The notes below the pieces were generated by a model. That model saw nothing but the letters and a program-made list of their open reading frames with translations. It ran no database searches and was not told the DNA's origin. Made by a program: the position numbers and the translations under genes. DNA of 64,000 nucleotides from Synaphobranchus kaupii (lineage: Eukaryota > Chordata > Actinopteri > Anguilliformes > Synaphobranchidae). Location: the NCBI GenBank assembly GCA_029718625.1, contig CM056377.1, positions 95,286,998 through 95,350,997 of the forward strand, given 5' to 3'. Below, one piece after another: positions 582 through 62,699 of this stretch (the first letter of the stretch is position 1; the number at the start of each line of letters is the position of its first letter).

Positions 582-722
582 CAGCTTGGTGACAGTGGGA
601 GATGGAGTGGAAAACACCCTCGGCTGTGATGGAATGCAACTTTGTTTTATTTGAACCCCGCGGTGTTGAAAGGGATGTCTCTGCTGTCTATCTTAACCCG
701 CTGTGCTGCCTTGCGTTTGCAG

Positions 723-12620
<11,898 letters not shown>

Positions 12621-15719: not shown

Positions 15720-28006
<12,287 letters not shown>

Positions 28007-35449: not shown

Positions 35450-35501
35450 CTAACCTTCTTCAAATGCAGGGTTTTCTAGTTCCTCCCAAATAGCAATATC
35501 C
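35450..35501 (-). CDS. selp: selp cytoplasmic exon 2 and stop
   Basis: After an atttcag acceptor the exon encodes [17 protein letters not shown] and a TAG stop at 35450-35452. The Asn-Pro-Ala-Phe motif resembles the internalisation region of mammalian P-selectin tails. Confidence 0.85.
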
Positions 35502-38500
35502 CTGAAATAGAAAATGAATGGTTTCAATGACCTCATGGGGCTGTTCTCTAAAATAAAAATAAATATTCCCAACAAATCTGTTTGAAAGGAGACGTGAATT
35601 TGTATGTTTGTCTTGTGAAAGGCATGTACTTGACAATAAAGGATGTTTGACAATTACATTGCTACATATATTGCTAATGGCTAACCCAGAGAATGGGACT
35701 TACCTGGCTTCCAGAAATTGTTTTTGAGCTGCAAAAGAAGGGGCAAGTGCAACATAAGGTGCCGACTCCAATTTTGACTCAAAGTAAAACAACAGTACAT
35801 TGCTATGCCATGTACGTTCCCTTACCTCGCCTGGAAAGGTGAGAAACAGTGAGAAAAACCAGTCCGCACAGGAGTAGCAGGGAGATAGCCGAGGCAAACC
35901 CCACCCCGGCGGAGATCAGCATGCCCGTCCCGACTGTCATCTGTGGTTCTGGAAACACACCGAACAGTTACAAGCTGCTTTAAGAGGCCGTCAAACGGGA
36001 GAATGAGCAAGAACAAAAAAAAAAAAAAAACGTAGAAAAGAAAGCTGAAATATTTGCAAACGATTTGCCATGGAAGAGGGACAACAAATAAGCAAACAAA
36101 TATGCCTAAAGCGACGTTAAAAATGGCGCCCGCACCTGTACACGAGGGCCGAGGTGCGTTCCACATCCCGTTGGAGGCGCAGGACAGTCTAGCTGTCCCA
36201 TTGAGTGTGGAACCATTCCCGCAGTGGAAGAAGCACTGAGACCCGAAGCTAAAGATCCCCAGTGGATCCGAGCACTTCGCGGAGAGGAACGGGGGAAGGA
36301 GGTCACCCAGAGTCTGGCACCGCACAACTGCGAAGGAAATACAGCAGCACTTTGGGTCGACGCGACGTCTTAACAAAGCTTCCTGAAAATGCAGCATCAG
36401 CATTATTATATGGGGCAACAGCGTAGTGTAAGGGTTAAGGATTTGAACTTGCACCTCAGAGCCTGCTGTTTCAAACTCCACTTGGAGCACTGTTGTACCC
36501 TTGAGGACGGCACTTAACCTAAATTGCTCCAGTAAACGGCCTTGCTGAGTAAGTGGACAGTACGTAAAAGATGGCTGGATAAGGGCATTTGCTTAGCAGA
36601 TATGTTATTTAAAGCCCTCTTCTCTCTTAGTTCCTGTGTGTGCAGTGAGAGATGGGCATTTCACCATGACAGTGGTGGCTTTATTCCTGAAAATCGTGGC
36701 GCGGGGTGGATAATTCCTCTCACGAAAAGAAACATTATTAACCAATGTGACTTACATTATACTTCAAAACAATTTGTTATTTTTCATCAAGGACAATGTA
36801 GTACCTAAACAGGATTTCCACCTACAAGGACTACATTTCTGGACTCCATATTATAAATACCTGCATGTATAATATTATCAATAAAGGAAATTATTGAAGC
36901 TGAATGCAAAATATTTCACTCTGTGCCCAGCAGGGGGAAATATTTGCTGTCATTGTCTAAATATCACCTAAATGTGTACAGTTGTTTGGGGAGTAGTTAC
37001 CCTGACAGATTGGAGGAGGCTCAGTCCACAATCCCAAGGAGGTGCACTGAATGGAAGCTGTCCCGTTGAGCAGGAACCCCTCCTCACAGGTCACGTTACA
37101 GCTGGAGTTGAAACTGAACTCCTCATGTGGGTGGGAGCAGTTCAGTGAGCCGTGGAGGGGAGCAGTTTGTACGTCGCACCGTCGAGCTGGAACAACAGGG
37201 AACAGACCCTCAGCTTCACTGCAGCCACCAGCACCAGACATGTAACATCTGAGCACGTGCAGACATCAGACAGTGATGTGGTGTCACCCCCACAGGTGGG
37301 AGGACAGTAGTTTTGAGGCTTCAGTCCACTTAAATACTTATTGTAATAAAAGACAAATGGGTCTTGGGGGTCCTTCCTTCTGGCAACATGGGAGTGAGAT
37401 AGATAAATCATGTATTTTAATGCTGATTTAAATGAGTAACTTCCAGACCAAAAATGTGATACATGGTATGACCATGAAGTCTCTCTCACTACACTGATGG
37501 TCTGTTTAGTCTGATTGTTATACAATACTGGTGACCTCTGGTTCCTGTCTGCCTCATTTTATCACCACCCTATTGCCACATGCTTTTAATATTGCACTCA
37601 ATAAGCAAAATCACAGACTGTGAGTTGTGTATCTCATCTTTATGGCGTTGAACAGTGAAAGCTCTCAGTCCTCTCTCTCTGTTCCCCTGTGTGCAGGGAG
37701 ATATGGGGGTCTCACCTTGGCAGGAGGGGACAGTGTGGCTCCAGAGCCCAGACTCAGTGCACTGCAGAGTGGGAGCTCCTCTCAGCACAAAGCCCTCCTC
37801 ACAGGCCAGCTCACAGCTGGAGCCAAAGCTGAAGTGGGAGTGAGGGTGAGAGCAGTTCATCTGCCCTCTGCTTGGAGCCACCAGGGGGAGACACTGTCGA
37901 GCTGAGAGGAAAGAAACAGGAGACACAGGCTACAGAGCTGAGCAGGGGGCCTTTCTCATACTGACAAAATTCAGGTCTTCAATACTTAAAGGTGTTTCAG
38001 CCGTATTATTCTCTTGAAAATAATGTCTATATGAAGGTGGTAGATAAGTCTTGTCACTTAATGATTATGCATCTACTCATTTAATTCTATTGTATTTATG
38101 GCCAAAAACTTGTTACAAATTCAAAGAATTTTTGCAAAACAGAGGAATTCTATCCCACAAGATTTGGACTGTCAGGCCACCAATTAGTAGTAGGCCCTGT
38201 CATTTGATGATGCAAATGTATTCAAGTGAAGCTGATTAAAACATGTTTCATTCTGTGCCCAGCAGGGGGAAATATTTCCTCATTTATCACCCAGTATCCC
38301 CTAAAAGTGTGAAGAGTTTCACGTGTTGGCATTTAGCCATTTAGCAGACTTTCTTGTCCAGAGTGTCTTTTCAAAAGTTCAAACAAAAAGGGTAGCCGCA
38401 GAACACATACTGTACAATAACAAGTTAACTGTCATGACTAGGGCCAACAATTTGGGTGCGTCCCAATATTCTTCACTTCCCACCTCCTTTCCTCCACTCC

Positions 38501-41500
38501 CCCACTACCACTCCTCTTCTACCCGGAAGTATGCAAAACTGCCTGAAAGTTTTACATTAAGATGTAGGGTGCGTCCCAATATTCTTCAATCCCCACCTCC
38601 CTACCTCCCCACCTCCACTCCCCCACTACCACTCCTCTTTCAGTTTTCAGTACAAGTATTTGCATGTACAGTATACAATGTACCTGATATTGCGGTTTGC
38701 GTTGAGACATTAATTAATATGTAACCATTTATATGTAATTAAGATGTAATCAGCAATATTAGATTAAAACACAAAGATCCGTTTCCGGGGCACGGAGTAG
38801 ACGAGTGGTAGTGGAGGAGGAAAGGTTGCATTTTTCAACTATTGGGACGCACCCCAGATCAGCAACATTAGATTAAAACACAAAGACCCGTTTCCGGGGT
38901 ACGGAGGAGAAGAGGTGGTAGTGAAGGAAAGGAGGGTGCATTTTTTGAGTATTGGGATGCACCCTTTGTCTCCACCATGGGTGCATCTCAATATTCTTCA
39001 CTCCCCACCTCCTTTCCTCCACTCCCCCACTACCACTCCTCTCCTACCCGAAAATATGCAAAACTGCCTGAACGTTTTGAGTACAAGTATTTGCATGTAC
39101 AGTATAGAATGTACCTGATATTGCGGTTTGCGTCGAGACATTAATTAATATGTAACCATTTATACGTAATTAAGATGTAATCAGCAACATTAGATTAAAA
39201 CACAAAGATCCGTTTCCGGGGCACGGAGTAGGGGAGGTGGTAGTGGAGGAAGGGAGGGTGCATTTTTGTAGCGATTTAAACTTGCATTTCAATGATTATC
39301 CTCCTGGGGTCCCCATAGGCACTCCAACAGCACAGTCAAGTGACTAATCATACAATTAAGTTTATAATTGAGACATTTAAAAAAACAATTTGTTTGTTTT
39401 TTATGAGGAGAATCAGGAAGGAAAGTGAACATGGATGGAAGGTTAAATGTTACGAAAAGAATGTCAGGAGTGAGCCTGTGGTCCTCAGTCCTGGTCCTGA
39501 CTTTTGTTCTTACTCAGCGCTTGAGTAGCACAGCAATGATAAGTGAAAACAGTTGATTACATGGTTAACTCAGGTCACCTGGTTTCTTGGGTCTGAATCG
39601 GTCGCTGATGTTAAGGAAAAAACAAAAACTAGAAGATTATCAAGGAACAGGATTGAATATCACTACAATAACGGCAAATAAAAATAACGGGAAAATAAGT
39701 TATTCTATTCTATTCTATTCTATAAAAAGAAAAATGCACGCATATAAAGCACGGGTGTCCAATATTATCCAAAAAGGGCCGGTGTAGGCACATGTTTTTG
39801 TTTTAGCCCACCACTAAGACACCAGATTCTACTTAAGGCCTTTATTGAAGACCATGATTAGTTAATTGGTTCAATCATGAATTTATTCTCTTTTTTTTAA
39901 ACATTTTTGTGCAAGTTAAATGCTATATAAGTTCTCTCATTTTTAATGTAGGCATTTCCCACTGCTTCTACCAAAACCTAAAATGCCCATGCACAACATT
40001 TAAAATACTGCAGCATGTGCATGGTAGTAAGTAATCGAACTGAATTTAACACGTGAGTGTCGCTTGTAAACATCGCTGTCAATCATCGTCTGTGCTTAAT
40101 TAGTGCCAATTACTGTATCAACTTAGATTATTGCGGTGATGCAAATGGGATAATTGTTTGCGAAGTATCTTGACGGAGAGGCTATCGCAACCTCTAATTG
40201 GTGGAGGACTGAAGTATCACACGAGAAAACAAGGGGAAACAAAATGGTGGCCTTAGTCATGACAAATAGTGGGAGTCATTACATAAACCTGTAACATAAT
40301 GGTAAGTGCCATGGTTGGTGCAAGAGGGAATTTCAGGTTATGATGTTTAAATTACCAAATATATTTCAGGGTATAGTGTGTAGTTAAAGTAAAGGTAGTA
40401 ATCCCAAGATAAATTCTCAGTTTAGAGTTTATAGATCTGTGACGCAGATTAAATAATTGGGTTTTCGGTCTTTGTTCAATCAGTTATTGGGGGAAAGTTA
40501 CCCTGACAGAGTGGTAGTGGCTCAGTCCACAAGCCCAAGGAGGTGCACTGAATGGAGGCTGTCCCGTTGAGCAGGAACCCCTCCTCACAGCTCAGGTTAC
40601 AGCTGGAGTTGAAGCTGAACTCCTCATATGGGTGGGAGCAGTGCAGGGAGCCGTAAAGGGGAGCAGTTAGTATATCACACCGCCGAGCTAGAACAGCAGG
40701 AAACAGACCCTCAGTTTCACTGCAGCAAACAGCACCACACGTAACATCTGAGAACGTGCAGACGTCAGAGTGATGTGGTGTTGCCCCCACAGATGGGAGG
40801 ACAGTCGTTTTCAGATTTGAGTCCACTGTAGGCACAAGAGGATCACGCACCCTTCCCAAGAGTAGTTTCCACCACATACTGCAAGCATAACCTCATTACT
40901 GGCATTTAGATATTAAGATATTTTGATGGTGGGCTGTTGGGTGTCTCATCCTGTTAAAGCTGGGGACACATTACATGATTTTTCCAATCGTAAGCGACAA
41001 TGAAGGGAATGGGCAGCACACATTTAACAACTGTCATATAAAGATTTCCAGTCACTTCTGTTGCACACACATAAGGACAGCTGTCTTTGAGGAGCACATA
41101 TCTTAACGATGGAGAACAGACAAGGTTCTCAAGCTTGAACGTAATTTTACGTGGTAGCCTACCTGCACTCGCGAGAATGTATTTTTCCATGATATTTTGA
41201 AACGATATGGAGCCCGTACAGCTTACAACTTGTCAGTTTTGTTGTAACTTGAAGAGTTGACATTATACAGACACTCATTTGTCTGCCACAAATCTCTCCA
41301 TGTTTTCAGCACTCCAGAAAACATGTTTATTGGGCTCAGCCATCCCGCATGTTGGATTTTGTGTTTACTTCCGTATTTTTCCTCATCTTCCTCTGTTGCA
41401 AACTCAATCTTCATTGGCTATTGAAACTTATCGTTGTAATTTGAGTATTTGACAAGCACAAACCACAGGATTAGGCAAATACTAGCCCCAATAAAATCAA

Positions 41501-44500
41501 ACATGTTTGATAAAATTGTAGCGTTGATGACTAGGTTTGTACAAGAGAAATTTCAGTCTTTCACTCCCACATAACAATTACAGCTACGACAATAGTGCGA
41601 CTACCCTGGACTGTCCTGGACAACCGCAGACTCTGCCAGATCTCAAATTGTTGCCAAATTAGGCAAAGAAATAGCATAATGTGTCCCCAGCTAAAGGCAC
41701 TGTTCTAGGTCATAGATGGGCCCCACAGACTGGTTTCAAATCCAGACCGTTGCAATAACAACTGTGGCTGGCAGCCCCACTGGGCAACGTACATTTGGTT
41801 CTAGTGTTGCTTAGGGAAGGGAGGGTTTCAGCTGGCCAGGATGCCAGCGTGTTGTTGCTCACTAGCGACTCCCACTGCTTGATCAGACACCTGCAGTCTG
41901 CATGTTGAGCTGCATATGAAGTGTCTTCCTCCGACTCATGTCTGTGCAACCTGGACTTGTGGACTTTGATGTGACAAGAAGTGGTGGCTGATATCACATA
42001 CTTTGGAGGAGTGAAAGTTGCTTTATAGACCAAATATAAGTTTGTGGCATCAAAGTAAATGTGTGACTATTTTATTTCACGCTCCACAGTGATGGTCATT
42101 CTAGTCTTCTTGAATGATTTCTGTGTGATGATGGTAACCTCTGGTGCATGTCTGACTCAGTTCTTGACCACACTGCTAGTTGAGTATCTCATCGTTATGG
42201 CATTGCACAGTGAAAGCTCTCAGTCCACTCTCTCTGTTCCCCTGTGTGCAGGGAGATATGGGGGGTCTCACCTTGGCAGGAGGGGACAGTGTGGCTCCAG
42301 AGCCCAGACTCAGTGCACTGCAGAGTGGGAGCTCCTCTCAGCACAAAGCCCTCCTCACAGCCCAGCTCACAGCTGGAGCCAAAGCTGAAGTGGGAGTGAG
42401 GGTGAGAGCAGTTCATCTGCCCTCTGCCTGGAGCCACCAAGGGGAGACACTGTTGAGCTGAGAGGAAAGAAACAGGAGACATGCTACAGTGAGCTGTCTG
42501 GGGCATTTCTCATATTAATATGTTATCTACAATTCATACTTTTACTTATTATGTTTTATCCAAGTTATAATTAATTCCTGAAACTAATGGGGCAGATGTG
42601 GAAAATTACAGATCCTGATGGCAACATTATTTACTGACCGACATTCCACCCCAAGACTGTTGGTTATTTCTGTTCCAAAGACAATGTAGTAGAAAAGAGT
42701 AAGATTTTTGTCTACAAGGACAAAAACTGGACTCCATACTATGAGTACCTGTATGTGTACTCTTATCAGTACTGTATGTGTACTCTTATCAGTACAGGAA
42801 ATGTATTTTATTACAGCAGACTACAACATGTTTCACTCTGTGCACAGCAGGAGGAAATATTTATTCACTCACCACTCAGTATCCACAAAATGTGTACAGT
42901 TGTTTGGGGAGTAGATACCTTGACAGAGTGGAAGTGGCTCAGTCCACCCCCCCAAGGAGGTGCACTGAATGGAGGCTGTCCCGTTGAGCAGGAACCCCTC
43001 CTCACAGCTCACGTTACAGCTGGAGTTGAAGCTGAACTCCTCATGTGGGTGGGAGCAGTGCAGGGAGCCGTGGAGGGGAGGAGTTAGTACATCACACCGC
43101 CGAGCTAGAACAGCAGGAAACAGACCCTCAGCTTCACTGCAGCCACCAGCACCACATATGTAACATCTGAACATGTGCAGACGTCAGATAATGATGTGGT
43201 ATCTCCCCCACAAGTGATAAGACAGGAGTTTTCAGACTTGAGTTCACAGTAGGAACAAGAGGGTCACGCAACCCTCTAACATGTTGTTCTACCAACATAC
43301 AGCTACCATATCCTCATAACTGACATGTCGATTTGTACTAAATTCTATGTAAGATATTTCTATTGTGGGCTTTTGGGAGGCTCATCCTGTTAAGGCACTG
43401 TTCTGGTGCATGGATGGCCCCCGCTGTCTGGTTTTGAATCGAGACAATTCCAATGCCAACTGTGGCTGGCAGCCCCACAGGACAATGTACAGTTGGTTCT
43501 ATTGTTGCTCTGGGAAGAGTGGTTTCAGCTGGCCAGGATGCCAGCGTGTCATCGCTCACTAGCGACTTCCACTGGTTGATCAAACACCTGCAGTCTGCAT
43601 GTTGAGCTGCATCTGAAGTGTCTTCCTCTGACTCATGTCTGTGCAACCTAGACTTGTGGACTTTGTGTGAGAAGAAGTGTTGGCTTATATCACATGCTTT
43701 GGAGGAGTGAAAGTTGCTTTATAGACCAAATATAAGTTTGTGGCATCAACGTAAATGTGACTATTTTATTTCTCGCTCCACAGTGATGGTCATTCCAGTC
43801 TTCTGAGTGATTGCTGTGTGATGATGGTGATCTCTGGTGCACGTCTGACTCAGTTCTTGACAACACTATCATCATATTAATAAAATCACAGACTGTGAGT
43901 TGTGTATCTCAACTTATGGCATTGAACAGTGAAAGCTCTCAGTCCTCTCTCTCTGTTCCCCTGTGTGCAGGGAGAGATGGGGGTCTCACCTCGGCAGGAG
44001 GGGGCAGTGTGGCTCCAGAGCCCAGACTCAGTGCACTGCAGAGTGGGAGCTCCTCTCAGCACAAAGCCCTCCTCACAGCCCAGCTCACAGCTGGAGCCAA
44101 AGCTGAAGTGGGAGTGAGGGTGAGAGCAGTTCATCTGCCCTCTGCTTGGAGCCACCAAGGGGAGACACTGTCGAGCTGAGAGGAAAGAAACAGGAGACAT
44201 GCTACAGTGAGCTGTCTGGGGCATTTCTCATGTTACTATCAGTTATCTACAATTAATACATTTACTTATTATGTTTTTCCCAGTTATAATTAATTAGTGA
44301 AACTAATGGGGCAGATGTGGAAAATTCCAGCTCCTAACGGCAACATTATTTACTGACCTACATTCCACCCCAAGACTGTTGGCTATTTCTGTTCCAAAGA
44401 CAATGTAGTAGCAAAACAGAAAGATTTTTCTTTACAAGGACTAACATACTGGACTCCATATTATGACTGCCTGTATGTGTATTCCTGTCAGTATTGGAAA

Positions 44501-47500: not shown

Positions 47501-50500
47501 GGAGGAGTGAGAGTTGCTTTACTGACCAAATATTAGTTGTGGAATAAATGTAAATATGACTATATAATTTCTCCCTCTACAGTGATGGTCATTCCAGTCT
47601 TCTGAGTGATTGCTGTGTGATGATGGTGACCTCTGGTGCACGTCTGACTCAGTTCTTGACCACACTATCATCATATTAATAAAATCACAGACTGTTAGTT
47701 GTGTATCTCATCTTTATGGCATTGAACAGTGAAAGCTCTCAGTCCTCTCTATCTGTTCCCCTGTGTGCAGGGAGAGATGGGGGTCTCACCTTGGCAGGAG
47801 GGGGCAGTGTGGCTCCAGAGCCCAGACTCAGTGCACTGCAGAGTGGGAGCTCCTCTCAGCACAAAGCCCTCCTCACAGCCCAGCTCACAGCTGGAGCCAA
47901 AGCTGAAGTGGGAGTGAGGGTGAGAGCAGTTCATCTGCCCTTTGCTTGGAGCCACCAAGGGGAGACACTGTCGAGCTGAGAGGAAAGAAACAGGAGACAC
48001 AGGCTACATAGCTGAGCAGGGGGCCTTTCTCATACTAAAATCAGTTACCTACAATTCATACATTTTGTGGAGTCGTTTGAGGAGTAGTTACCTTGACAAA
48101 GTGGAAGAAGCTCAGTCCACATCCCCAAGGAGGTGCACTGAATGGAGGCTGTCCCATTGAGCAGGAACCCCTCCTCACAGCTCACATTACAGCTGGAGTT
48201 GAAGCTGAACTCCTCATGTGGGTGGGAGCAGTGGAGGGAGCCGTGGAGCGGAGGAGTTAGTACATCACACCGCCGAGCTAGAACAGCAGGAAACAGACCC
48301 TCAGCTTCACTGCAGCCACCAGCACCACACATGTAAAATCTGAGCACATGCAGACATCAGATAATAATGTGGTGTCGCCACCCACAGGTGGAAAGACAGG
48401 AGTTTTCAGACTTGAGTTCACAGTAGGAACAAGAGGGTCACGCAACATTCCTAACATGTTGTTCTACCAACATACAGCTACCATATCCTCATAACTGACA
48501 TATCGATTTGTAGAAAATTCTATGTAAGATATTTCTATTGTGGGCTTTTGGAAGGCTCATCCTGTTAAGGCACTGTTCTGGTGGATGGATGGCCCCCACA
48601 GTCTGGTTTCGAATCAAGACAATTGTAATGCCAACTGTGGCTGGCAGCCCCACAGGATAATGTACAGTTGGTTCTATTGTTGCTCAAGGAAGAGTGGTTT
48701 CATCTGGCCAGGATAACAGCATGTCATCGCTCACTAGCGACTCCCACTGGTTCATCAGACACCTGCAGTCACAACCCTCCTTTTTCTGAGCAACACTAGA
48801 ACCAACTGTATGTTGCCCTGTGGGGCTGCCAGCCACAGTCGTCATTGGAACGATTTTGATTCGAAACCAGACTATGGGGCCCATCCATCCACGGGAACAG
48901 TGCCGTAACAAGATGAGACTCCCAACAGCCCACCATCGAAATATCTTACAAAGAATTTTCTACAAGTTCTTCCCTCTGCTTGGAGCCACCAGGGGAGAAA
49001 CTGTCGAGCTGAGAGGAAAGAAACAGGAGACACAGGCTACAGTGAGCTGTTTGGGGCATTTCTCATGTTAATATCAGTTATCTACAATTAATACATTTAC
49101 TTATTATGTTTTATCCCAGTTATAATTAATTCCTGAAACTAATGGGGCAGATGTGGAAAACTCCAGCTCCTAACGGCAACATTATTTACTGACCTACATT
49201 CCACCCCAAGACTGTTGGTTATTTCTGTTCCAAAGATAGTGTAGTCACAAAACAGAAATATTTTTGCCTACAAGGAATAGAATTCTGGATTCCATATTAT
49301 GACGACCTGTATGTGTACTCTTATCAGTATTGGAAATGTATTTTATTATAGCTGACTACAACATGTTTCACTCTGTGCCCAGCAGGAGGAAATATTTATT
49401 CACTCACCACTCAGTATCCACAAAATGTGTACAGTTGTTTGGGGAGTAGATACCTTGACAAAGTGGAAGTGGCTCAGTCCACACCCCTAAAGAGGTGCAC
49501 TGAATGGAAGCTGTCCCGTTGAGCAGGAACCCCTCCTCACAGCTCATGTTACAGCTGGAGTTGAAGCTGAACTCCTCATGTGGGTGGGAGCAGTGCAGGG
49601 AGCCGTGGAGGGGAGCAGTTAGTACGTCGCACCGCCGAGCTGGAACAACAGGAAACAGACCCTCAGCTTCACTGCAGCCACCAGAACCAGACGTAACATC
49701 TGAGCACGTGCAGACGTGATGTGGTGTCACCCCCACAGGTGGGAGGATAGTCGTTTTCAGACATTAGTTTACTGTAGGCACAAGAGGGTTACAAACCCTT
49801 CTCAAAACCTAGTTTCCGGCACAAATTGCTAACATATCCTCATTTCTGTCAGGACAACTCATGTATTTAAATGACATGTATAATAAATGAATGTGCTGCA
49901 TAATTATTTTGGTTTGGCGCTGAATGGATCTGCTTTAGTACTGCTCTGGAGCAGGGGCATCTCCCCCCCACTAAACAGGAGATGACCAGAAACCGCCCAT
50001 ACCAAAGCAGATCCAAACAACAGGTGGAAGCTGGGGTGGTGGAAGGTGATAGCAAATTTATTTTAACACAAGTCGTAAGCAGTGCGTCAGAAAGCAGCAG
50101 AGAACTGATTATTGTTTTAAAAAGGGCGCTCTATTAGAAGTGTGTGCATGTGATTGGTTGAGTATGGGACGCGTGGCTGCTAGCCGACCATCGTTGGCTA
50201 CAGCAAGTGGTTTTCCGACAGAACTTGCTCTGCACACTAATCGTTTGCGATGCTCATTCCTGCATTTGAATTTGTAGAAAATTCTTTGTAAGATATTTCG
50301 ATGGTGGGCTGTTGGGAGTCTCATCTTGTTAAGGCACTGTTCTGGTAGATGGATGGGCCCCATAGTCTGGTTTCAAATCAAAATCGTTCCAATGACAACT
50401 GTGGCTGGCAGCCCAACAGGGCAACTTACAGTTGGTTCTAGTGTTCCTCAGAGAAAGGAGGGTTTCAGCTGGCCAGGATGCCAGCGTGTCATCACTCACT

Positions 50501-53500
50501 AGCGACGCCCACTGGTTGATCAGACACCTGCAGTCTGCATGTTGAGCTGCATATGAAGTGTCTTCCTCCGACTCATGTCCGTGCAACCTACACTAGCAGA
50601 CTTTGGTGTGAGAAGAAGTGTTGGCTGATGCTTGGAGGAGTGAGAGTTGCTTTACTGACCAAATATTAGTTGTGGCATCAACGTAAATGTGACTATATAA
50701 TTTCTCCCTCTACAGTGATGGTCATTCCAGTCTTCTGAGTGATTGCTGTGTGATGATGGTGACCTCTGGTGCACGTCTGACTCAGTTCTTGACCACACTA
50801 TCATCATATTAATAAAATCACAGACTGTGAGTTGTGTATCTCATCTTTATGGCATTGAAAGCTCTCAGTCCTCTCTCTCTGTTCCCCTGTGTGCAGGGAG
50901 ATATGGGGGGTCTCACCTTGGCAGGAGGGGGCAGTGTGGCTCCAGAGCCCAGACTCAGTGCACTGCAGAGTGGGAGCTCCTCTCAGCACAAAGCCCTCCT
51001 CACAGCCCAGCTCACAGCTGGAGCCAAAGCTGAAGTGGGAGTGAGGGTGAGAGCAGTTCATCTGCCCTCTGCTTGGAGCCACCAGGGGGAGACACTGTCG
51101 AGCTGAGAGGAAAGAAACAGGAGACACAGGCTACAGAGCTGAGCAGGGGGCCATTCTCATACTAAAATCAGTTATCTACAATTCATACATTTTGTGGAGT
51201 CGTTTGGAGAGTAGTTACCTTGACAAAGTGGAAGAAGCTCAGTCCACATCCCCAAGGAGGTGCACTGAATGGAGGCTGTCCCATTGAGCAGGAACCCCTC
51301 CTCACAGCTCACGTTACAGCTGGAGTTGAAACTGAACTCCTCATGTGGGTGGGAGCAGTGGAGGGAGCCGTGGAGCGGAGGAATTAGTACATCACACCGC
51401 CGAGCTAGAACAGCAAGAAACAGACCCCCAGCTTCACTGCAGCCACCAGCACCACACATGTAACATCTGAGCACGTGCAGACATCAGATAATGATGTGGT
51501 GTCGCCACCCACAGGTGGGAGCACAGGAGTTTTCAGACTTGAGTTCACAGTAGGAACAAGAGGGTCACGCAACCTTCCTAACATGTTGTTCTACCAACAT
51601 ACAGCTACCATATCCACATAACTGACATATCGATTTGTAGAAAATTCTATGTAAGATATTTCTATTGTGGGCTTTTGGGAGGCTCATCCTGTTAAGGCAC
51701 TGTTCTGGTGGATGGATGGCCCCCACAGTCTCGTTTTGAATCGAGACAATTCCAATGCTAACTGTGGCTGGTAGCCCCACAGGACAATGTACAGTTGGTT
51801 CTATTGTTGCTCAGGGAAGAGTGGTTTCAGCTGGCCAGGAGCCAGCGTGTCATCGCTCACTAGTGACTCCCACTGGTTGATCAGACACCTGCAGTCTGCA
51901 TGTTGAGCTGCAAGTGTCTTCCTCTGACTCATGTCTGTGCAACCTGGACTTGTTGACTGTGGTGTGAGAAGAAATGGTGGCTGATATCACATGCTTTGGA
52001 GGAGTGAAAGTTGCTTTATAGACCAAATATAAGTTTGTGGCATCAACGTAAATGTGACTATTTTATTTCTCCCTCTACAGTGATGGTCATTCCAGTCTTC
52101 TGAGTGATTGCTGTGTGATGATGGTGACCTCTGGTGCACATCTGAGTAAGTTCTTGACCACACTATCATCATATTAATAAAATCACAGACTGTTAGTTGT
52201 GTATCTCATCTTTATGGCATTGAACAGTGAAAGCTCTCAGTCCTCTCTCTCTGTTCCCCTGTGTGCAGGGAGAGATGGGGGTCTCACCTTGGCAGGAGGG
52301 TGCAGTGTGGCTCCAGAGCCCAGACTCAGTGCACTGCAGAGTGGGAGCTCCTCTCAGCACAAAGCCCTCCTCACAGCCCAGCTCACAGCTGGAGCCAAAG
52401 CTGAAGTGGGAGTGAGGGTGAGAGCAGTTCATCTGCCCTCTGCTTGGAGCCACCAAGGGGAGACACTGTCGAGCTGAGAGGAAAGAAACAGGAGACACAC
52501 GCTACAGACTTTTGTCATACTGACAAATATCAGTTATCTGCAATGCATATCTTTGCTTAAACATGTTTTATCCTTGTTATTATTAATTCCTGAAAATAAC
52601 TGGGCAGATATAGAAAATTCCAGACACTAATGGCAACATTATCTACTGACCTACTTTCCACTCCAAGGCTGTTGGTTATTTTTTGTACCAAAAACATTGT
52701 AGTCGCAAAACAGAATGTTTTTTGCCCATGAGAACTAAAATGCTGGACTCCATATTATGAGCACCTGTATGTCTATTCCTATCAGTATATGATGCAAATG
52801 TATTTTATTGAGGCTGATTAAAATATATTTCACTTTGTGCCCAGCAGGAGGAAATATTTACTCACTCAACCACTGATTATCCCCAAAATGTGTGTAGTTA
52901 TTTGGGGAGTAGTTACCCTGACAGAGTGAAAGAGGCTCAGTCCACAATCCCAAGGAGGTGCACTGAATGGAGGCTGTCCCGTTGAGCAGGAACCCCTCCT
53001 CACAGGTCACGTTACAGCTGGAGTTGAAGCTGAACTCCTCATGTGGGTGGGAGCAGTGCAGGGAGCCGTGGAGGGGAGCAGTTAGTACATCGCAACGTCG
53101 AGCTGGAACAGCAGGAAACAGACCCTCAGCTCCAGAGAGCTACATTGCAGGACAATGCCAGCCATTTTGAAAAGAACATACTGAACTCCCAAGGTAACAT
53201 GTGCTGCTGCAATAAAAGTCTTTCAGCCTTAAGGCAGGAATGGGGACCGCTGTGCTCCTCATTACTCCCACAGGTAAGCACTTTATCATCAAAATACAAT
53301 AAGGGTGCTAGGGATGAGAGCCATGGACAACAATGGCTATACATTGTCAACATTGAGTCTCCCACATGAGACCAATTGTGACTATCAGATGAGAATCAGT
53401 GAACCCAGGGAAGCAGACAGCTCATATACAGTTCAACAATTCTGAGAATAATCTTTGCACAAAATAAGCAGATTGTTCGGCAGCTCCTTGCAAGTCATGG

Positions 53501-56500
53501 TTTCCTTGGGTGGGGTCCTTCGGTGGAGTGAAAATGGCCCTCATATTCTCACAGCAGTTCAGTTTATTGTGGTTTGTAGAATCTAGTGTATCGTAAGAGG
53601 GGTGTTGCCATTGCTGGTGTTGCAAGTGCCTACGTTTCACAAGAGAGATGATGCACACTTCCCTAAAAGTTGAATAAATTATATGCATTTAGAACACATA
53701 TTGTGCTATGGGTAGTTAAACAGAATCGAATAAATAAATAAATTATACCTTCACATATTGGCATGTCATCTGTCCACGACCCACTGGGGTTACACTGAAT
53801 ACTGCTAGGCCCTTTCAGCACAAATCCCTCTTCACAGGTGAAATCACACGTGGAATCAAAACTGTGTGGCTCTACAGGATGGGAGCAGTTCATGCTTCCT
53901 CTGGTAGGAGCGCGGGACAGCTCTGGGCATTTCACAGCTGCAGTACAATCAGGACAGAGAAAGAAATCATCTTGCCTGTCTTACTGCATTTGTCCCACTC
54001 TCTGATCCAGCCTTACTACTCCAATTGAACCAGGAACAATCACAATAATGCAAAGGAGCTCACAAGTGAAGAACTGATTGATTTCTCAGCTTGACATCGC
54101 ACACCTCCAGTAGAAGAGGTGAAACAGACATCGCACACCTCCAGTAGAAGAGGTGAAACAGACATCGCACACCTCCAGTAGAAGAGGTGAAACAGACATC
54201 GCACACCTCCAGTAGAAGAGGTGAAACAGACATCGCACACCTCCAGTAGAAGAGGTGAAACAGACATCGCACACCTCCAGTAGAAGAGGTGAAACAGACA
54301 TCGCACACCTCCAGTAGAAGAGGTGAAACAGACATCGCACACCTCCAGTAGAAGAGGTGAAACAGACATCGCACACCTCCAGTAGAAGAGGTGAAACAGA
54401 CATCGCACACCTCCAGTAGAAGAGGTGAAACAGACAGTGTGCACCCAGGGGGTGTAAAAAATGTTTACCCTGGCATGAGGGAGGATCAGCGTCCCAACGG
54501 CCGGAAGCCTGGCACTGCAGATGCGATGCCCCCTTGAGCAAGAACCCCTGGGCGCAGCGAAATGCACAGGAAGAGTTGAACCGGAAGGAGCCGTATGTAT
54601 GGGTGCATTGCAGTGAGCCGCGTTCCGGAGCCTGCAGGAAGCCACACGCTACAGCTGTGGAATGAATACAGACACAAATCTCAAATATGTTCTTCCTTAA
54701 TTCTGAACCTGGCTACCCACTGCATTTACAGATTTCCCACAGTCCGGCCAGCTACAATCTTTTATTAGTTAACACCTTTAATTCATTCTTTAATATCATG
54801 AATACTAGGCAATACTCCTAATATAATTAAGAGACACAAATTAAGAAAGAAATAGTTGCATGTTTGATGAAATATGGTAGTTATGTCAGTAGTTGAAGGC
54901 AAATTTGTGTAATATATGCCCCAAATGACAGCAGAAAACTACCATTGAATCTCAAATCTGGATTAATTCATATGAGAGCTCAATTACTCCTAGTTAAAGA
55001 GTTGAACCATTTTGGACTGTGAGTTAAAAACTCTTGAACTAACAAATATTCACCTGTTCTGGACAGCCCCCCAAAAGGGTTTGGTTATTAATCCCTCACC
55101 TAGCACCGGGCCGTTTTCAGACCGGAAGTGGTTTAGTTAATTAGCATTAATCTGGTCACACAATATACCGTTTGAAAATGTTACAACTCATGATTCTACC
55201 TCTATAAACTATTTTACAATCCCAATATTATTGCGACAATGGTTCCTTATTTTGTAACATGACGCAAAACAGGCTCAATCAAAATGAAGACTTTGTACAT
55301 TCTATGTGTTCCACGAAAATCCACAGATGAAATTAATAACGGTAAAGTTTGTATCCTTATCCCGAAAAAAAAAAAAAAAAACTTTTAGGCAAGAAAAAAA
55401 ACTTCCATTTCCACTGTGTTTGAGCTTCTGTTACTTTGTTCCAGTAATACTTAGAGTAATTCTGACTCTTGGAATGTGTTCAAAAAAGGGTGGTGCTAGA
55501 GAAGGGGTTAGATGATACAATTTTGCATTTTGCATGGACCTAGCACCACAGACCCAGTAGAATCAGGTGTGTAACTGCTTGGTTGGAACAAAAGCCTGCA
55601 CCCACACTGCGCCCTTACTGGATAAGATTGAGGACCCCTGCACTAGCATGATCTCTTGAGGGGAAGCCCCTTTTGAAAACTGAAGTTGTAGGCATGCAGC
55701 ACTCTGTGGAAATGACTGAAAAATAAACCTGGATCCAATTAATCCGTGATCTGCTGGATGGACTGATTAAAACACTTGTTATGTCTGACCTTCCTCGCAG
55801 CGCAGTCCCTGGAAGCCGGGGTGACAGTTGCAGGTGTAGTTCCCGATGGTCTCCACACATTCAGTCTGGGTCCTGCAGGACTGTTCTCTGCAGGAAGCTT
55901 AACACAGGAAATGATCACACACCATTCCCAATTTCTCATTACTGCTATAAAGTTCAGGCAATATTGGTACCATCTAATACAGGTTATACTGAGAACGATT
56001 CAAGTCAATCGATCAGTCAAGTCTGATTTGGTACAACATTCTGTAATAATTTAGATTGTATTATTAGTTTAATAGGTCCCAATATCATTCCAGTGAATGC
56101 ATGTTAAACGTGATCATGTAACTTTGTTGTTCTCATTGAAAAATCATCTTTGAATTGATCAAATTGAAGTTCTTTGTAACCACATGAAGAAAGTTGCACA
56201 ATAACCAGGATTGGCTGCTTGTTACCGTGATAACAAAGGGCCCCCTTCGCATTTTTGCAGCTGTTATCATTCCACTTTCCAGCCTCTGAATCTCTCTTTA
56301 TGTAAATCTCTACGCAGTCCTCTTGCTGTTTCTTTCCTCGGTTATTGGGCTCCCGCTTGGCCCAGTTCTCAGATTCCCGGGTCAGCGTCTTGTTGGTGCC
56401 GACCCACGTCCAGAGGCCTCTAACTTTCCTGATGCCGATCCAATAGTAATATCTGTTCTTGGGCAGGTTCTCATTGAGGTATGCGATTTCTCCCTGGTTC

Positions 56501-57552
56501 TGTATGGCTACCATATCGGTGTAGTGCTGACGACACCAGTCCCTCGCAGAATTCCAGTTCCTATTGGGGCTTATGCTGTAATGGTACGTCCAGGCCTGCA
56601 CTCCTGTCTCAGCTGACAGATCTGCATGAAGCAGTGCAAACATTATGCAGGTTGTCAGATTGAGAGAGGCGGCCATTCCTATTGATTTCTATTCAGTTGT
56701 TAAATAATACCTCTGTATGAAAGTGAAATCAAGTGTGCAAGGGTGTCATAATATTGCAGTATTACATATGTCTCAATAAAAGCACTAACTTTACAAGACT
56801 ATTAATACAAGAATGTACATATAAGGTTGGTAATCTTCCTGAAAACATTTCTTTCATTACATCACCCCCATTTTTTTGTTACGCAAAGGTGCTTTTCTAC
56901 ATACAGTACCAGTCAAAAGTTTGGACACACCTACTCATAGGTTTTTTAAAGTTTCTTTTACTGTTTTCCACATTTTAGAATAGTAAAGTCATCAAAACAA
57001 TGAGATAACACATTAAATTATGCAAACAAATAAAAAAAAGTGTTATATTTTAGATTCTTCAAAGTAGCCACCCTTTGCCTTGATAACGGCTTTGCACATT
57101 CTTGCCATTCTCTCAACCAACTTATGTGGTAAACAGGTATTCCACAGGTAAACAGGTGATGCTATCATGACTGTATAAAAGGATATTGAAAGACTCTTGA
57201 TACCTTATTTCAAGGCAAAGGGTGACTACTTTGAAGAATCTAAAATATAAGACGTTTTTTATTTTATTTACTATTTGATTTACTTTACTATTCTAAAATG
57301 TGGAAAACAGTAAAAATAACAAAAAAAAAACTTTCTACGAGTAGGTGTGTCCAAAATTTTGACTGGTACTGTACATGTAAAGTTTTTTAAAAATATATTC
57401 AAATGAACAAAAATGTCTATATTGTTTTAAGAACAGCCTATAATTAATGTATTTATGAGTAATATCATAATCTTACCATAGCCAAGGGCAAACAGGCCAA
57501 TAAGGAGCCCAAAATGGCATTTCTGACTAATACAGTGTCCCCAGAGCAGCAT
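35450..57552 (-). CDS. selp: P-selectin-like adhesion receptor with 19 CCP domains, complete
   Basis: Selectins are membrane lectins on endothelium, platelets or leukocytes that bind sialylated fucosylated glycans and start leukocyte rolling. The coding exons join to 4323 nt including the stop, about 1440 aa. The order is signal peptide (1-25), C-type lectin domain (26-157), EGF (158-193), 19 CCP/sushi domains (194-1374), TM segment (1375-1415) and a short tail. The lectin domain keeps the calcium-site EPNN and WND motifs. Every extracellular exon is phase 1 at both ends. The tail ends NPAFEEG, recalling the NAAFDP tail of mammalian P-selectin, and the gene lies downstream of an L-selectin-like gene, as in mammals. 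Human P-selectin has nine CCPs and 830 aa, so the expansion is large. An E-selectin-like identity is less likely because of the tail. Exon coordinates are listed separately. Confidence 0.85.
35704..35728 (-). CDS. selp: selp cytoplasmic exon 1
   Basis: A 25-bp exon between cttttgcag and a perfect gtaagt donor encodes AQKQFLEA. It joins in frame to the TM exon and to the last exon. Very small cytoplasmic exons are normal in selectin genes. Confidence 0.8.
35826..35948 (-). CDS. selp: selp transmembrane exon
   Basis: The 123-bp exon encodes [19 protein letters not shown], then [20 protein letters not shown]: a hydrophobic helix followed by a basic stop-transfer end. Donor cgag|gtaagg. Confidence 0.93.
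36136..36327 (-). CDS. selp: selp CCP19 (membrane-proximal, type C)
   Basis: A 192-bp phase-1 exon that belongs to neither repeated type. It encodes [38 protein letters not shown] and MWNAPRPSC. Six cysteines are kept, the selectin-type CCP pattern. Confidence 0.92.
36404..36607 (+). mobile_element. tRNA-derived SINE with the common fish SINE tail
   Basis: A tRNA-like head (agcgtagtgtaagggttaagg, then gtttcaaactccac) is followed by tgtacccttgagga, acttaacctaaattgct and a terminal tggataagggcatttgctta phrase. This matches the widespread fish SINE end gataagagcgtctgcta. It lies in the intron between CCP18 and CCP19. A fragment of the same tail occurs in reverse at about 38327-38366. Confidence 0.75.
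37001..37186 (-). CDS. selp: selp CCP18 (type A)
   Basis: A 186-bp phase 1-1 exon encoding [31 protein letters not shown] and LWTEPPPIC. It keeps six cysteines and sequons at NCS, NSS, NVT and NGT. It is the last A copy and one of the more divergent ones. Confidence 0.95.
37716..37901 (-). CDS. selp: selp CCP17 (type B)
   Basis: A 186-bp phase 1-1 exon encoding [35 protein letters not shown] and LWSHTVPSC. This copy has CELAC where most B copies have CELGC. Confidence 0.95.
38454..39262. mobile_element. Cluster of nested MITEs with gggtgcgtcccaata ends
   Basis: The terminus gggtgcgtcccaatattctt occurs at about 38454, 38573 and (as gggtgcatctcaata) 38980. Its inverse occurs at about 38840-38857 and 38948-38965, with a truncated inverse near 39255. 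Inner blocks (cctccactcccccactaccactcctc and inverse) also pair. This looks like insertions of one family into itself, in the selp intron between CCP16 and CCP17. Confidence 0.75.
39700..39723. repeat. (TATTC)n microsatellite
   Basis: Four to five copies of the pentamer tattc occur in the CCP16-CCP17 intron. Confidence 0.85.
39752..39850. mobile_element. hAT-like MITE terminal fragment
   Basis: The phrase acgggtgtccaatattatccaaaaagggccggtgtaggca resembles one end of a common fish non-autonomous hAT-like element. The other end was not identified, so this is a fragment or a diverged copy. Confidence 0.35.
40502..40687 (-). CDS. selp: selp CCP16 (type A)
   Basis: A 186-bp phase 1-1 exon encoding [31 protein letters not shown] and LWTEPLPLC. 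It differs from other A copies by DILTAPLYG and CNLSC. Confidence 0.95.
41690..42015 (+). mobile_element. SINE copy in selp module (1)
   Basis: It carries the shared blocks ggtttcaaatccagaccgtt (B-box-like), gtggctggcagccccac, agctggccaggatgccagcg and tgcagtctgcatgttgagct. The head differs from the other copies and may be truncated. Confidence 0.65.
42272..42457 (-). CDS. selp: selp CCP15 (type B)
   Basis: A 186-bp phase 1-1 exon encoding [29 protein letters not shown] and [14 protein letters not shown] replaces the usual APSRG. Confidence 0.95.
42919..43104 (-). CDS. selp: selp CCP14 (type A)
   Basis: A 186-bp phase 1-1 exon encoding [29 protein letters not shown] and [14 protein letters not shown] is unique to this copy. 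Confidence 0.95.
43365..43690 (+). mobile_element. SINE copy in selp module (2)
   Basis: The head ggctcatcctgttaaggcac, the B-box-like tggttttgaatcgaga and the ggctggcagccccac block are present, in the same position relative to the A and B exons as in neighbouring modules. Confidence 0.7.
43990..44175 (-). CDS. selp: selp CCP13 (type B)
   Basis: A 186-bp phase 1-1 exon encoding [29 protein letters not shown] and [11 protein letters not shown], where Arg replaces the usual Gln at the donor codon. Confidence 0.95.
44618..44803 (-). CDS. selp: selp CCP12 (type A)
   Basis: A 186-bp phase 1-1 exon encoding [34 protein letters not shown] and VWTEPLPLC. The NCSH-type site becomes HCFH and the later sequon is NRT. 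Confidence 0.95.
45060..45400 (+). mobile_element. SINE copy in selp module (3)
   Basis: Same blocks as the other module copies: aaggcactgttctactgcat, tggtttcaaatccaaac, ggctggcagccccac and ctgcagtctgcatgttgag. Confidence 0.7.
45680..45865 (-). CDS. selp: selp CCP11 (type B)
   Basis: A 186-bp phase 1-1 exon encoding [29 protein letters not shown] and LWSHTAPSC. The left limit of the ~2.94-kb duplicated block falls inside this exon, at about 45828. Confidence 0.95.
46309..46494 (-). CDS. selp: selp CCP10 (type A)
   Basis: A 186-bp phase 1-1 exon encoding [36 protein letters not shown] and VWTEPLPLC. The usual FNSSCNVS sequons are lost (FNSRCDMS). It is entered as x|TT, giving Val in place of Ala. 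Confidence 0.95.
47166..47500 (+). mobile_element. SINE copy in selp module (4)
   Basis: Head ggagtctcatcttgttaaggc, B-box-like ctggtttcgaatcaaaat and the ggctggcagccccac block. Part of this copy (about 47143-47330) is the source-like sequence for the inverted fragment at 48771-48968. Confidence 0.75.
47790..47975 (-). CDS. selp: selp CCP9 (type B)
   Basis: A 186-bp phase 1-1 exon encoding [29 protein letters not shown] and LWSHTAPSC. Only 116 bp of intron separates it from CCP8, much shorter than in most modules. Confidence 0.95.
48092..48277 (-). CDS. selp: selp CCP8 (type A)
   Basis: A 186-bp phase 1-1 exon encoding [29 protein letters not shown] and MWTELLPLC. It follows CCP7 directly because the B exon between them is destroyed. 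Confidence 0.95.
48537..48770 (+). mobile_element. SINE copy in selp module (5), cut at the duplication junction
   Basis: The copy has the usual head, B-box-like tggtttcgaatcaaga and ggctggcag block, but stops at acctgcagtc (48770), where an inverted fragment begins. Confidence 0.8.
48771..48969 (-). repeat. Inverted ~200-bp fragment at the duplication junction
   Basis: The segment, from acaaccctcctttttctgagc to gaattttctacaagttc, is the reverse complement of SINE-plus-flank sequence like 47143-47330 (or 50280-50460). It joins the cut SINE on its left to the cut B exon on its right. Confidence 0.88.
48970..49008 (-). pseudogene. Relic of a type B CCP exon (first ~37 bp only)
   Basis: The minus strand keeps the intact acceptor (cctctcag) and the start of a B exon through gtggctccaagcagagg, then runs into the inverted fragment. 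The remaining ~149 bp and the donor are missing. One change (cagtttctc for cagtgtctc) also removes the first CCP cysteine. This explains why two A exons, CCP7 and CCP8, are adjacent. Confidence 0.9.
49454..49639 (-). CDS. selp: selp CCP7 (type A)
   Basis: A 186-bp phase 1-1 exon encoding [29 protein letters not shown] and VWTEPLPLC. It is the duplicate partner of CCP10, but keeps the FNSSCNMS sequons. Confidence 0.95.
50297..50630 (+). mobile_element. SINE copy in selp module (6)
   Basis: Near-identical partner of the copy at 47166-47500 in the duplicated block. Confidence 0.75.
50917..51102 (-). CDS. selp: selp CCP6 (type B)
   Basis: A 186-bp phase 1-1 exon encoding [29 protein letters not shown] and [10 protein letters not shown] 116-bp intron separates it from CCP5, as for its partner CCP9. 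Confidence 0.95.
51219..51404 (-). CDS. selp: selp CCP5 (type A)
   Basis: A 186-bp phase 1-1 exon encoding [29 protein letters not shown] and MWTELLPLC. It is the partner of CCP8, sharing the unusual MWTELL. Confidence 0.95.
51664..51985 (+). mobile_element. SINE copy in selp module (7)
   Basis: Head ggctcatcctgttaaggcac, tcgttttgaatcgaga, ggctggtagccccac and the ctgcagtctgcatgttgag block. It is the uncut partner of the copy at 48537-48770. Confidence 0.7.
52288..52473 (-). CDS. selp: selp CCP4 (type B)
   Basis: A 186-bp phase 1-1 exon encoding [29 protein letters not shown] and LWSHTAPSC. First B copy in transcription order. Confidence 0.95.
52917..53102 (-). CDS. selp: selp CCP3 (type A)
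   Basis: A 186-bp phase 1-1 exon encoding [29 protein letters not shown] and LWTEPLSLC. First A copy; the intron before it lacks the module-type sequence and marks the edge of the amplified array. Confidence 0.95.
53749..53937 (-). CDS. selp: selp CCP2
   Basis: A 189-bp phase 1-1 exon, neither A nor B, encoding [35 protein letters not shown] and SWTDDMPIC, with six cysteines. It shares NCSHP and CEEGFVL with type B and may be closest to its ancestor. Confidence 0.94.
54095..54436. repeat. 34-bp minisatellite, 10 copies
   Basis: The unit starting catcgcacacctccagtaga repeats every 34 bp with essentially no change from 54095. It lies in the selp intron just downstream (in transcription) of CCP1, beginning about 32 bp past the donor. 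Because 34 is not a multiple of three, all frames stay open and give spurious repetitive ORFs. Confidence 0.97.
54469..54654 (-). CDS. selp: selp CCP1
   Basis: A 186-bp phase 1-1 exon encoding [37 protein letters not shown] and RWDADPPSC, with six cysteines. It directly follows the EGF exon in the mRNA. Donor ccagg|gtaaac. Confidence 0.94.
54655..55789. other. selp intron between EGF and CCP1 exons
   Basis: AT-rich intron with an A-run at 55365-55380 and a fragment of an hAT-like MITE near 55540-55640 (cctagcaccacagacccag...gaggacccctgca). No exon is recognised. Confidence 0.6.
55790..55897 (-). CDS. selp: selp EGF-like domain exon
   Basis: A 108-bp phase 1-1 exon, the standard selectin EGF size, encoding [29 protein letters not shown] and LRCEE, with six cysteines. 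Acceptor gttaag|cttcc, donor gaag|gtcaga. Confidence 0.96.
56226..56621 (-). CDS. selp: selp C-type lectin domain exon
   Basis: A 396-bp phase 1-1 exon encoding [71 protein letters not shown] and GKWNDNSC. The EPN and WND calcium and sugar ligands are present. A short insertion (RGKKQQ) sits after EPNN relative to mammalian P-selectin. Confidence 0.97.
56903..57372. mobile_element. Tc1/mariner-type MITE in selp intron 1
   Basis: The ends cagtaccagtcaaaagtttg and its inverse (ttgactggtactg) flanked by TA are the known ends of fish Tc1-like elements. The arms extend inward (gtttcttttactgttttccac, aagattcttcaaagtagccac and inverses), so the element is mostly two long inverted arms with the transposase deleted. 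Confidence 0.88.
57477..57552 (-). CDS. selp: selp signal peptide exon with start codon
   Basis: ATG at 57552-57550 opens [19 protein letters not shown] followed by LFALGY, a typical hydrophobic signal sequence, then a gtaaga donor in phase 1 that matches the lectin exon. A preceding non-coding exon may end at about 57808 (gaaaag|gtaaga). Confidence 0.88.
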
Positions 57553-59490: not shown

Positions 59491-59608
59491 TTACACACGG
59501 ATGATAAAAAAATAGGTATGCAGCCATAAGAAACCTCTACATTTGTCTGCTTGCAGGGTTACAGCTTCAAATTCATCGCCAGGTTGTGGTCTGTCCTCCT
59601 CTGGAGGT
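59491..59608 (-). CDS. sell: sell terminal cytoplasmic exon (end uncertain)
   Basis: After acceptor catgtag the frame gives [19 protein letters not shown] and stays open to TAA at 59491-59493. The last residues ([13 protein letters not shown]) are oddly hydrophobic for a tail. The exon may instead splice after GDEFEA (weak ct|gtaacc donor) to an exon starting at 58861 that reads ECNCMEVENWEEDKTYW. Confidence 0.5.
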
Positions 59609-62683: not shown

Positions 62684-62699
62684 CTGAGATCCTTGCCTG

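What the first reader, a model, noticed from the sequence alone, without database searches (positions are those of the whole stretch)
35450..57552. P-selectin-like gene with 19 CCP domains built by amplifying a two-exon module
Seen: sixteen consecutive CCP exons (CCP3-18) of two alternating types, A and B, each 186 bp and phase 1-1, between divergent CCP1, CCP2 and CCP19. All splice in frame to 4323 nt. Known: mammalian P-selectins have about 6-9 CCPs, and the CCP stalk sets how far the lectin domain stands off the cell. Inference: this fish has a much longer selectin, perhaps with copy-number variation between individuals.
Basis: partly seen in the sequence, partly recalled or inferred. Interest (0 to 1): 0.87.

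Follow-up and report, generated by a model that had tools for sequence, protein, structure and literature searches.

The report
Eel selectin with 19-domain stalk
A deep-sea eel's blood-vessel adhesion gene carries a 19-domain stalk built by copying two kinds of exon again and again; long stalks of this sort turn out to be common in fish, but one exon type is almost free of silent differences while its neighbours drifted, which hints at copy-and-paste between repeats.

Summary
On the minus strand, 35450-57552 encodes a complete selectin: signal peptide, C-type lectin, EGF, 19 CCPs, transmembrane segment, short tail; 24 of 24 introns are GT-AG. CCP3-18 are sixteen 186-bp phase 1-1 exons, 9 type A and 7 type B, ordered ABABAABABABABABA, so they do not strictly alternate. 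The protein matches Synaphobranchus kaupii, an eel. The AA step is the junction of a three-exon (ABA), about 2.9-kb tandem duplication (97.1% identical), with a B-exon remnant and an inverted 198-bp segment: growth was not only by two-exon steps. Nineteen CCPs is long next to mammals (6-9) but not exceptional: 12 of 225 single-lectin selectin-like proteins counted have 19 or more, up to 29. A- and B-type CCPs occur in moray, Anguilla, conger, tarpons, halosaur, gar and bowfin; type B forms one clade across them, while copies mostly cluster by species (concerted evolution). Unexpected: B exons vary at 1 of 61 third positions, paired A exons at 20 of 61, and B varies less than its own introns. 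Exon-centred gene conversion is my preferred reading; constraint on the DNA is not excluded. Transcripts and copy-number variation between individuals were not testable here.

The parts
57477..57552 (-). exon 1, start codon and signal peptide
   Evidence: same N-terminus inside GenBank model P0001
56226..56621 (-). C-type lectin exon (alternative acceptor at 56678 adds 57 nt in frame)
   Evidence: lectin-EGF-CCP1-2 scores 303 bits to E-selectin 4c16, and matches L- and P-selectin structures
55790..55897 (-). EGF exon
54469..54654 (-). CCP1 (divergent, positionally conserved)
   Evidence: CCP1 clade 97* in tree
53749..53937 (-). CCP2 (divergent, 189 bp)
   Evidence: CCP2 clade support 88
52917..53102 (-). 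CCP3, type A
52288..52473 (-). CCP4, type B
51219..51404 (-). CCP5, type A
50917..51102 (-). CCP6, type B
49454..49639 (-). CCP7, type A
48969..51896 (-). first copy of the three-exon (ABA) duplication
   Evidence: 97.1% over 2924 aligned positions
48972..49008 (-). remnant of a B exon (its first 38-42 bp, acceptor in front intact, the rest gone) between CCP7 and CCP8
   Evidence: the only exon remnant found when six exon queries were compared with all 24 introns
48771..48968 (-). inverted copy of B-to-A intron sequence at the duplication junction (95.4% to 47136-47331, 94.4% to 50269-50464)
45826..48770 (-). second copy of the three-exon (ABA) duplication
48092..48277 (-). CCP8, type A
47790..47975 (-). 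CCP9, type B
46309..46494 (-). CCP10, type A
45680..45865 (-). CCP11, type B
44618..44803 (-). CCP12, type A
43990..44175 (-). CCP13, type B
42919..43104 (-). CCP14, type A
42272..42457 (-). CCP15, type B
40502..40687 (-). CCP16, type A
37716..37901 (-). CCP17, type B
37001..37186 (-). CCP18, type A
36136..36327 (-). CCP19 (divergent, membrane-proximal)
   Evidence: last-CCP clade 99*
35826..35948 (-). transmembrane exon
   Evidence: by reading
35704..35728 (-). cytoplasmic exon 1
35450..35501 (-). cytoplasmic exon 2 and stop

Best explanation
It is an intact selp-like selectin gene of the eel Synaphobranchus kaupii. Its lectin and EGF head sits on a stalk of 19 six-cysteine CCPs. The two membrane-distal CCPs and the membrane-proximal one are conserved by position, while the interior 16 form a two-type (A/B) exon array that is rebuilt within lineages: tandem duplication adds blocks (here an ABA block of about 2.9 kb), and the copies, B above all, are homogenised, most likely by gene conversion centred on the exon. 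Shown: gene structure, two types, the ABA duplication, clustering of copies mostly by species, low silent variation in B. Inferred: that the protein is made at full length, that the stalk holds the lectin head roughly twice as far out as nine-CCP human P-selectin (about 38 nm) to reach ligands under flow, and that conversion rather than constraint keeps B uniform.
For: Open frame with phase 1-1 CCP exons and 24 of 24 GT-AG introns; 19 of 19 CCPs have 6 Cys and 1 Trp; match to solved E-, L- and P-selectins; GenBank model P0001 contains the product except its last residue (presumably the same assembly, so not independent). A second selectin lies beside it in the same orientation (59.5-62.7 kb). 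ABA duplication with junction remnant and inverted segment. Tree of 131 CCPs from nine species: 35 of 36 domains typed B in one clade (99*), CCP1 97*, last CCP 99*; the 40 species-by-type groups need 42 changes against 107.7 in shuffles (0 of 200 as low). B: 1 of 61 third positions variable, against 20 of 61 in the seven A exons after (and also in the seven before) them, Fisher 3.8e-6 each; B dS 0.021 lies below intron divergence (mean 0.127) in 21 of 21 pairs. Stalk length matters in human P-selectin: nine repeats about 38 nm, removal of five or more prevents adhesion under flow (PMC9156680, passage); fewer repeats weaken E-selectin binding (PMC7076219, passages).
Against: No transcript was seen. 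A/B strings for other species come from predicted proteins. The 21 pairs share copies and are not independent. A exons have a higher dS (0.21) than the introns between (0.127), which conversion of B does not explain. The rise of intron divergence away from B is clear only with CCP17 included; without it, it is shallow (0.03-0.06 to 240 bp, about 0.09-0.11 to 400 bp, 0.03 in the last bin). dN/dS is 0.66 among B copies on very few changes. The tree has 61 columns and 56 of 99 inner branches open; near-copies alone cause clustering; S. kaupii B is not one group (4 changes, two of its B sit with Anguilla and conger); gar, bowfin and half of the mormyrid A domains fall in a cluster apart from eel A (91), so 'A' is not one ancient clade. 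P versus E is not settled.
Confidence: 0.76

Rival explanations
1. Assembly artefact: the array is over-expanded or scrambled, and the real gene has few CCPs.
For: It is a tandem repeat, and a perfect 10-copy 34-bp minisatellite sits in the CCP1-CCP2 intron.
Against: Longest exact direct repeat within 36901-53200 is 232 bp; introns differ in length and are 67-99% identical where they align; models of moray, Anguilla, conger, two tarpons and a halosaur carry the same two types. PMC12492003 (passage) cites GCA_029718625.1 of Parey et al. 2023 for this species; that the window is from it is inferred, that it rests on long reads is recalled.
Confidence: 0.06
2. The exons are real but much of the array is skipped by splicing, so the usual protein has a stalk of ordinary length.
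For: All CCP exons are phase 1-1, so any set can be skipped in frame; relatives have several predicted isoforms by name (e.g. 'isoform X6' for Anguilla rostrata).
Against: All splice dinucleotides are intact and all 16 exons are open; among A copies replacement divergence stays below silent divergence (dN/dS 0.22), as expected if translated; B is not informative here (0.66 on few changes).
Confidence: 0.2
3. B exons are uniform because their DNA is constrained (splicing signals, an antisense reading frame, codon effects), not because of conversion.
For: B is also the more conserved type between four eel species (mean 90.4% against 82.7% aa identity for A); the intron just after B is conserved too; antisense frames over B stay open.
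Against: In B the first and second codon positions vary at 2 and 5 sites, the third at 1 of 61, the reverse of protein-level constraint; A exons in the same transcript show no such effect.
Confidence: 0.3
4. The ABABAAB start shared with the moray was inherited, so the AA step is old and was later overwritten by homogenisation.
For: Type strings agree over the first 12 array positions.
Against: Here the two ABA copies are 97.1% identical including introns, while in the moray model CCP7 is identical to CCP14, the last A, and not to its neighbours, which suggests that another block was copied.
Confidence: 0.25

Closest known systems
Mammalian and zebrafish P-selectin (SELP)
   Same: lectin, EGF, CCPs, TM, short tail; CCP number known to vary: zebrafish 10, human and horse 9, mouse, rat and sheep 8, cattle, pig and rabbit 6 (PMC3000104, passages)
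   Different: 19 CCPs, of which 16 are similar copies of two types
Spotted gar P-selectin P0009 and bowfin P0021
   Same: interior run of A- and B-typed CCPs; their B falls in the same clade as eel B
   Different: 17 and 15 CCPs; their A-typed copies form a cluster apart from eel A; gar has a further A-like type
Moray (Gymnothorax javanicus) P0002, selp part
   Same: order 12ABABAABABABA9, same ends
   Different: 15 CCPs; copies carry moray-specific residues
Complement receptor 1 long homologous repeats (recalled, not tested)
   Same: works alike: CCP blocks duplicated inside one gene, with size alleles in people
   Different: blocks of about seven CCPs, complement receptor without lectin head

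Membership tests
selectin | N-terminal C-type lectin domain of selectin type with EPN and WND calcium-site motifs (motif names recalled) | tested here: met
   EPNN and WND present by reading; E-, L- and P-selectin are among the best solved-structure matches
selectin | single EGF domain after the lectin domain | tested here: met
selectin | CCPs with six cysteines each | tested here: met
   19 of 19
selectin | one TM helix and short cytoplasmic tail at the C-terminus | tested here: met
   (by reading, no predictor run)
selectin | gene lies in a selectin cluster | tested here: met
   second lectin, EGF, two-CCP, TM gene next door, same strand; no third selectin was sought
P-selectin in particular (not E or L) | orthology by tree or synteny; storage in platelet or Weibel-Palade granules | tested here: inconclusive
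   sources name relatives P- and E-selectin alike; no selectin-wide lectin tree built; storage not testable with these tools
two-exon module amplification | copies arise only in steps of one A plus one B | tested here: not met
   AA step from a three-exon duplication; the remaining order is compatible with AB steps

The most novel reading that the evidence does not exclude
Selectin stalk length in ray-finned fish is set by an ancient exon array of distinct CCP types that is rebuilt in each lineage and kept uniform by exon-centred gene conversion, so that stalk length is likely a copy-number-variable trait within species, including this eel.
Probability: 0.3. Interest if true: 0.65.

Novelty: new member of a known kind. 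Interest (0 to 1): 0.43.

Why it matters
Stalk length decides whether P-selectin can catch cells in flow. Relatives with a wide spread of CCP number (5 to 29 in the single-lectin proteins counted, most of them 8 to 16, the lowest partly fragments) offer a natural series for testing how far out an adhesion head must stand. The contrast between A and B exons inside one gene is a clean place to study gene conversion between exons.

Tried and rejected
Rejected: a pure two-exon amplification (AA step); 'longest known selectin' (12 of 225 single-lectin proteins counted have 19 or more CCPs); inheritance of the moray AA step as the leading view (copy identities disagree). Rfam on 34000-60000 and a tRNA scan of the whole window found nothing. 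Paper searches on fish selectins and CCP number, stalk length, concerted evolution and CR1 repeats showed no title or abstract start about such an array among the rows listed (1 to 15 rows each, of 1 to 889 papers; open-licence library only), so absence from print is not shown. A first intron comparison had one pair with no aligned positions scored 1.000; it was redone without the offset filter, where all 21 pairs had at least 100 positions. Pfam counts 20 Sushi stretches in the fused model P0001 where my profile counts 21 (2 + 19). Structure prediction was not run: cysteine pattern and domain matches already settle the fold, and the tool's description promises no lengths.

Full report
Observation. 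The finding lies on the minus strand. Splicing the exons listed under parts gives an open frame from a signal peptide through lectin, EGF, 19 CCPs, a transmembrane segment and a short tail ending ENPAFEEG. All 24 introns start GT and end AG. The CDS is 4323 nt with the lectin acceptor at 56621, or 4380 nt with an in-frame acceptor at 56678. Sixteen exons, CCP3 to CCP18, are 186 bp and phase 1-1. They are of two types that share 57-59% of nucleotides (63 pairs); nine are A and seven are B, ordered A B A B A A B A B A B A B A B A.

Organism and record. The best database hit, P0001 (1997 aa, Synaphobranchus kaupii, named hypothetical protein or E-selectin), contains the 1440-aa product except its last residue, so the window is taken to be this species. 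That model fuses the neighbouring two-CCP selectin (59.5-62.7 kb) in front and further 3' pieces (28.9-31.2 kb) behind. It is presumably the same assembly and no independent support. PMC12492003 (passages) gives GCA_029718625.1, Parey et al. 2023, for this species.

How long is long? PMC3000104 (passages) gives 10 CCPs for zebrafish P-selectin and 6-9 for mammals. I counted CCPs in all 260 proteins listed by three searches: 225 have exactly one lectin domain, and 12 of these have 19 or more CCPs, up to 29 (P0005); 35 proteins with none or several lectin domains, the window's own fused model among them, were left out. Several of the 12 are isoforms of one species (three are Misgurnus). The searches favour certain lengths and list only the best 120 of 496, 948 and 1438 hits, so this is no census. 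Examples: catshark P0037 has 19, alligator gar P0012 (a partial model) 20, spotted gar P0009 17, a frog P0011 18.

How the array grew. Comparing introns and aligning blocks shows a tandem duplication of three exons, A-B-A, with copies at 48969-51896 and 45826-48770, 97.1% identical over 2924 aligned positions. At the junction stand the first 38-42 bp of a B exon (48972-49008) and a 198-bp stretch (48771-48968) that is an inverted copy of B-to-A intron sequence (95.4% and 94.4% to two places). This explains the AA step: the copied block began after one B and ended just inside another. Six exon queries against all 24 introns found no other exon remnant. The inverted piece suggests template switching during replication (inference). 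Other introns show further events; for example those after CCP4 and CCP13 are 94% identical.

Wider history. Scoring each CCP against the window's own types gives 12ABABAABABABA9 for a moray, 1AAAABAAABABA9 for an Anguilla isoform, 12AAAAAAAABA9 for conger, 12AAAAAAAAB9 and 12BBABABABB9 for two tarpons of one genus, BABAB9 for a halosaur fragment, and A/B mixtures for gar and bowfin. Two 'B' domains of the tarpon M. cyprinoides read as B in front and A behind, which speaks for exchange within an exon. A tree of 131 CCPs from nine species puts 35 of 36 B-typed domains of eels, tarpons, a mormyrid, gar and bowfin in one clade (99*; the exception is a long-branch bowfin domain), and unites CCP1 (97*), CCP2 (88) and the last CCP (99*, with one gar domain that the typing had called A). 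Interior copies group mostly by species (42 changes for 40 species-by-type groups against 107.7 in shuffles), but near-copies alone produce this, S. kaupii B needs 4 changes, and gar, bowfin and half of the mormyrid A domains sit apart from eel A (91). With 61 columns, 56 of 99 inner branches are open. Reading: ends conserved by position, an interior in concerted evolution, and type B older than the split of gar and bowfin from teleosts; for type A that age is not shown.

The B puzzle. Across seven B exons 1 of 61 third positions varies; across the seven A exons after them 20 of 61 do, and the same number across the seven before them (Fisher 3.8e-6 each). First and second positions vary at 2 and 5 sites in B, so this is not protein constraint. 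B dS averages 0.021, intron divergence beyond 120 bp 0.127, and A dS 0.210; B lies below the intron in 21 of 21 pairs, which share copies and are not independent. Intron divergence after B is 0.034 in the first 40 bp, 0.07 at 80-120 bp and 0.1-0.25 from there to 400 bp; with CCP17 left out it is 0.03-0.06 to 240 bp, about 0.09-0.11 to 400 bp, and 0.03 again in the last bin, so the rise is shallow for the other six. In front of B identity falls off sooner (90% in the last bin, 76-80% in the two before it). Conversion centred on B fits this; constraint on the DNA is the rival. That A exceeds the introns is unexplained.

Function. Every CCP has six cysteines; seven of nine A have three N-glycosylation motifs, all seven B have one. 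Human P-selectin with nine repeats reaches about 38 nm, and removal of five or more prevents adhesion under flow, partly rescued by disrupting the glycocalyx (PMC9156680, passage). E-selectin with fewer repeats binds more weakly, through slower association (PMC7076219, passages). By inference 19 repeats would place the head roughly twice as far out. None of this was measured for the eel protein, and no transcript was available.

Verdict. A real selectin gene with a long stalk that was reshaped by duplication; a new member of a known kind. The added value is the ABA junction, the age of type B and the concerted evolution of the copies, and the silent uniformity of B.

Noticed in passing
54093-54436: 34-bp minisatellite, 10.1 perfect copies, in the intron between CCP1 and CCP2; a candidate for length variation between individuals.
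   Followed up: no
3791-3975: 61-bp unit in three tandem copies made of the end of an RXR-type zinc-finger exon (...[18 protein letters not shown]) plus its donor site, so donor-like sites stand in a row.
   Followed up: partly
59500-62720 minus strand: Neighbouring selectin gene with lectin, EGF and two CCPs (L-selectin-like); GenBank model P0001 fuses it with the long one.
   Followed up: partly
593-3441 and 24235-24696 plus strand: Exons that look like a retinoid X receptor gene and a LIM-domain gene (names RXRG and LMX1A recalled; LIM matches, RXR by reading).
   Followed up: partly
1-581 and 9516-10157: Two further minisatellites, 30 bp x 19.4 and 40 bp x 16, both 97% matches.
   Followed up: no
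P0013 and P0015 (Megalops atlanticus, M. cyprinoides): Predicted proteins of two tarpons of one genus have 12 CCPs each but quite different A/B make-up, and M. cyprinoides has B/A hybrid domains.
   Followed up: partly
P0005, P0017, P0045: Predicted single-lectin selectin-like proteins with 29, 27 and 22 CCPs, in which B-like domains come mostly at every second place.
   Followed up: no
B exons, antisense (plus) strand, e.g. 47683-47979: Long open frames run antisense across the B exons; no sign that they are genes.
   Followed up: no
A exons CCP3-18: Silent divergence among A exons (dS 0.21) exceeds that of the introns between them (0.127); unexplained.
   Followed up: no
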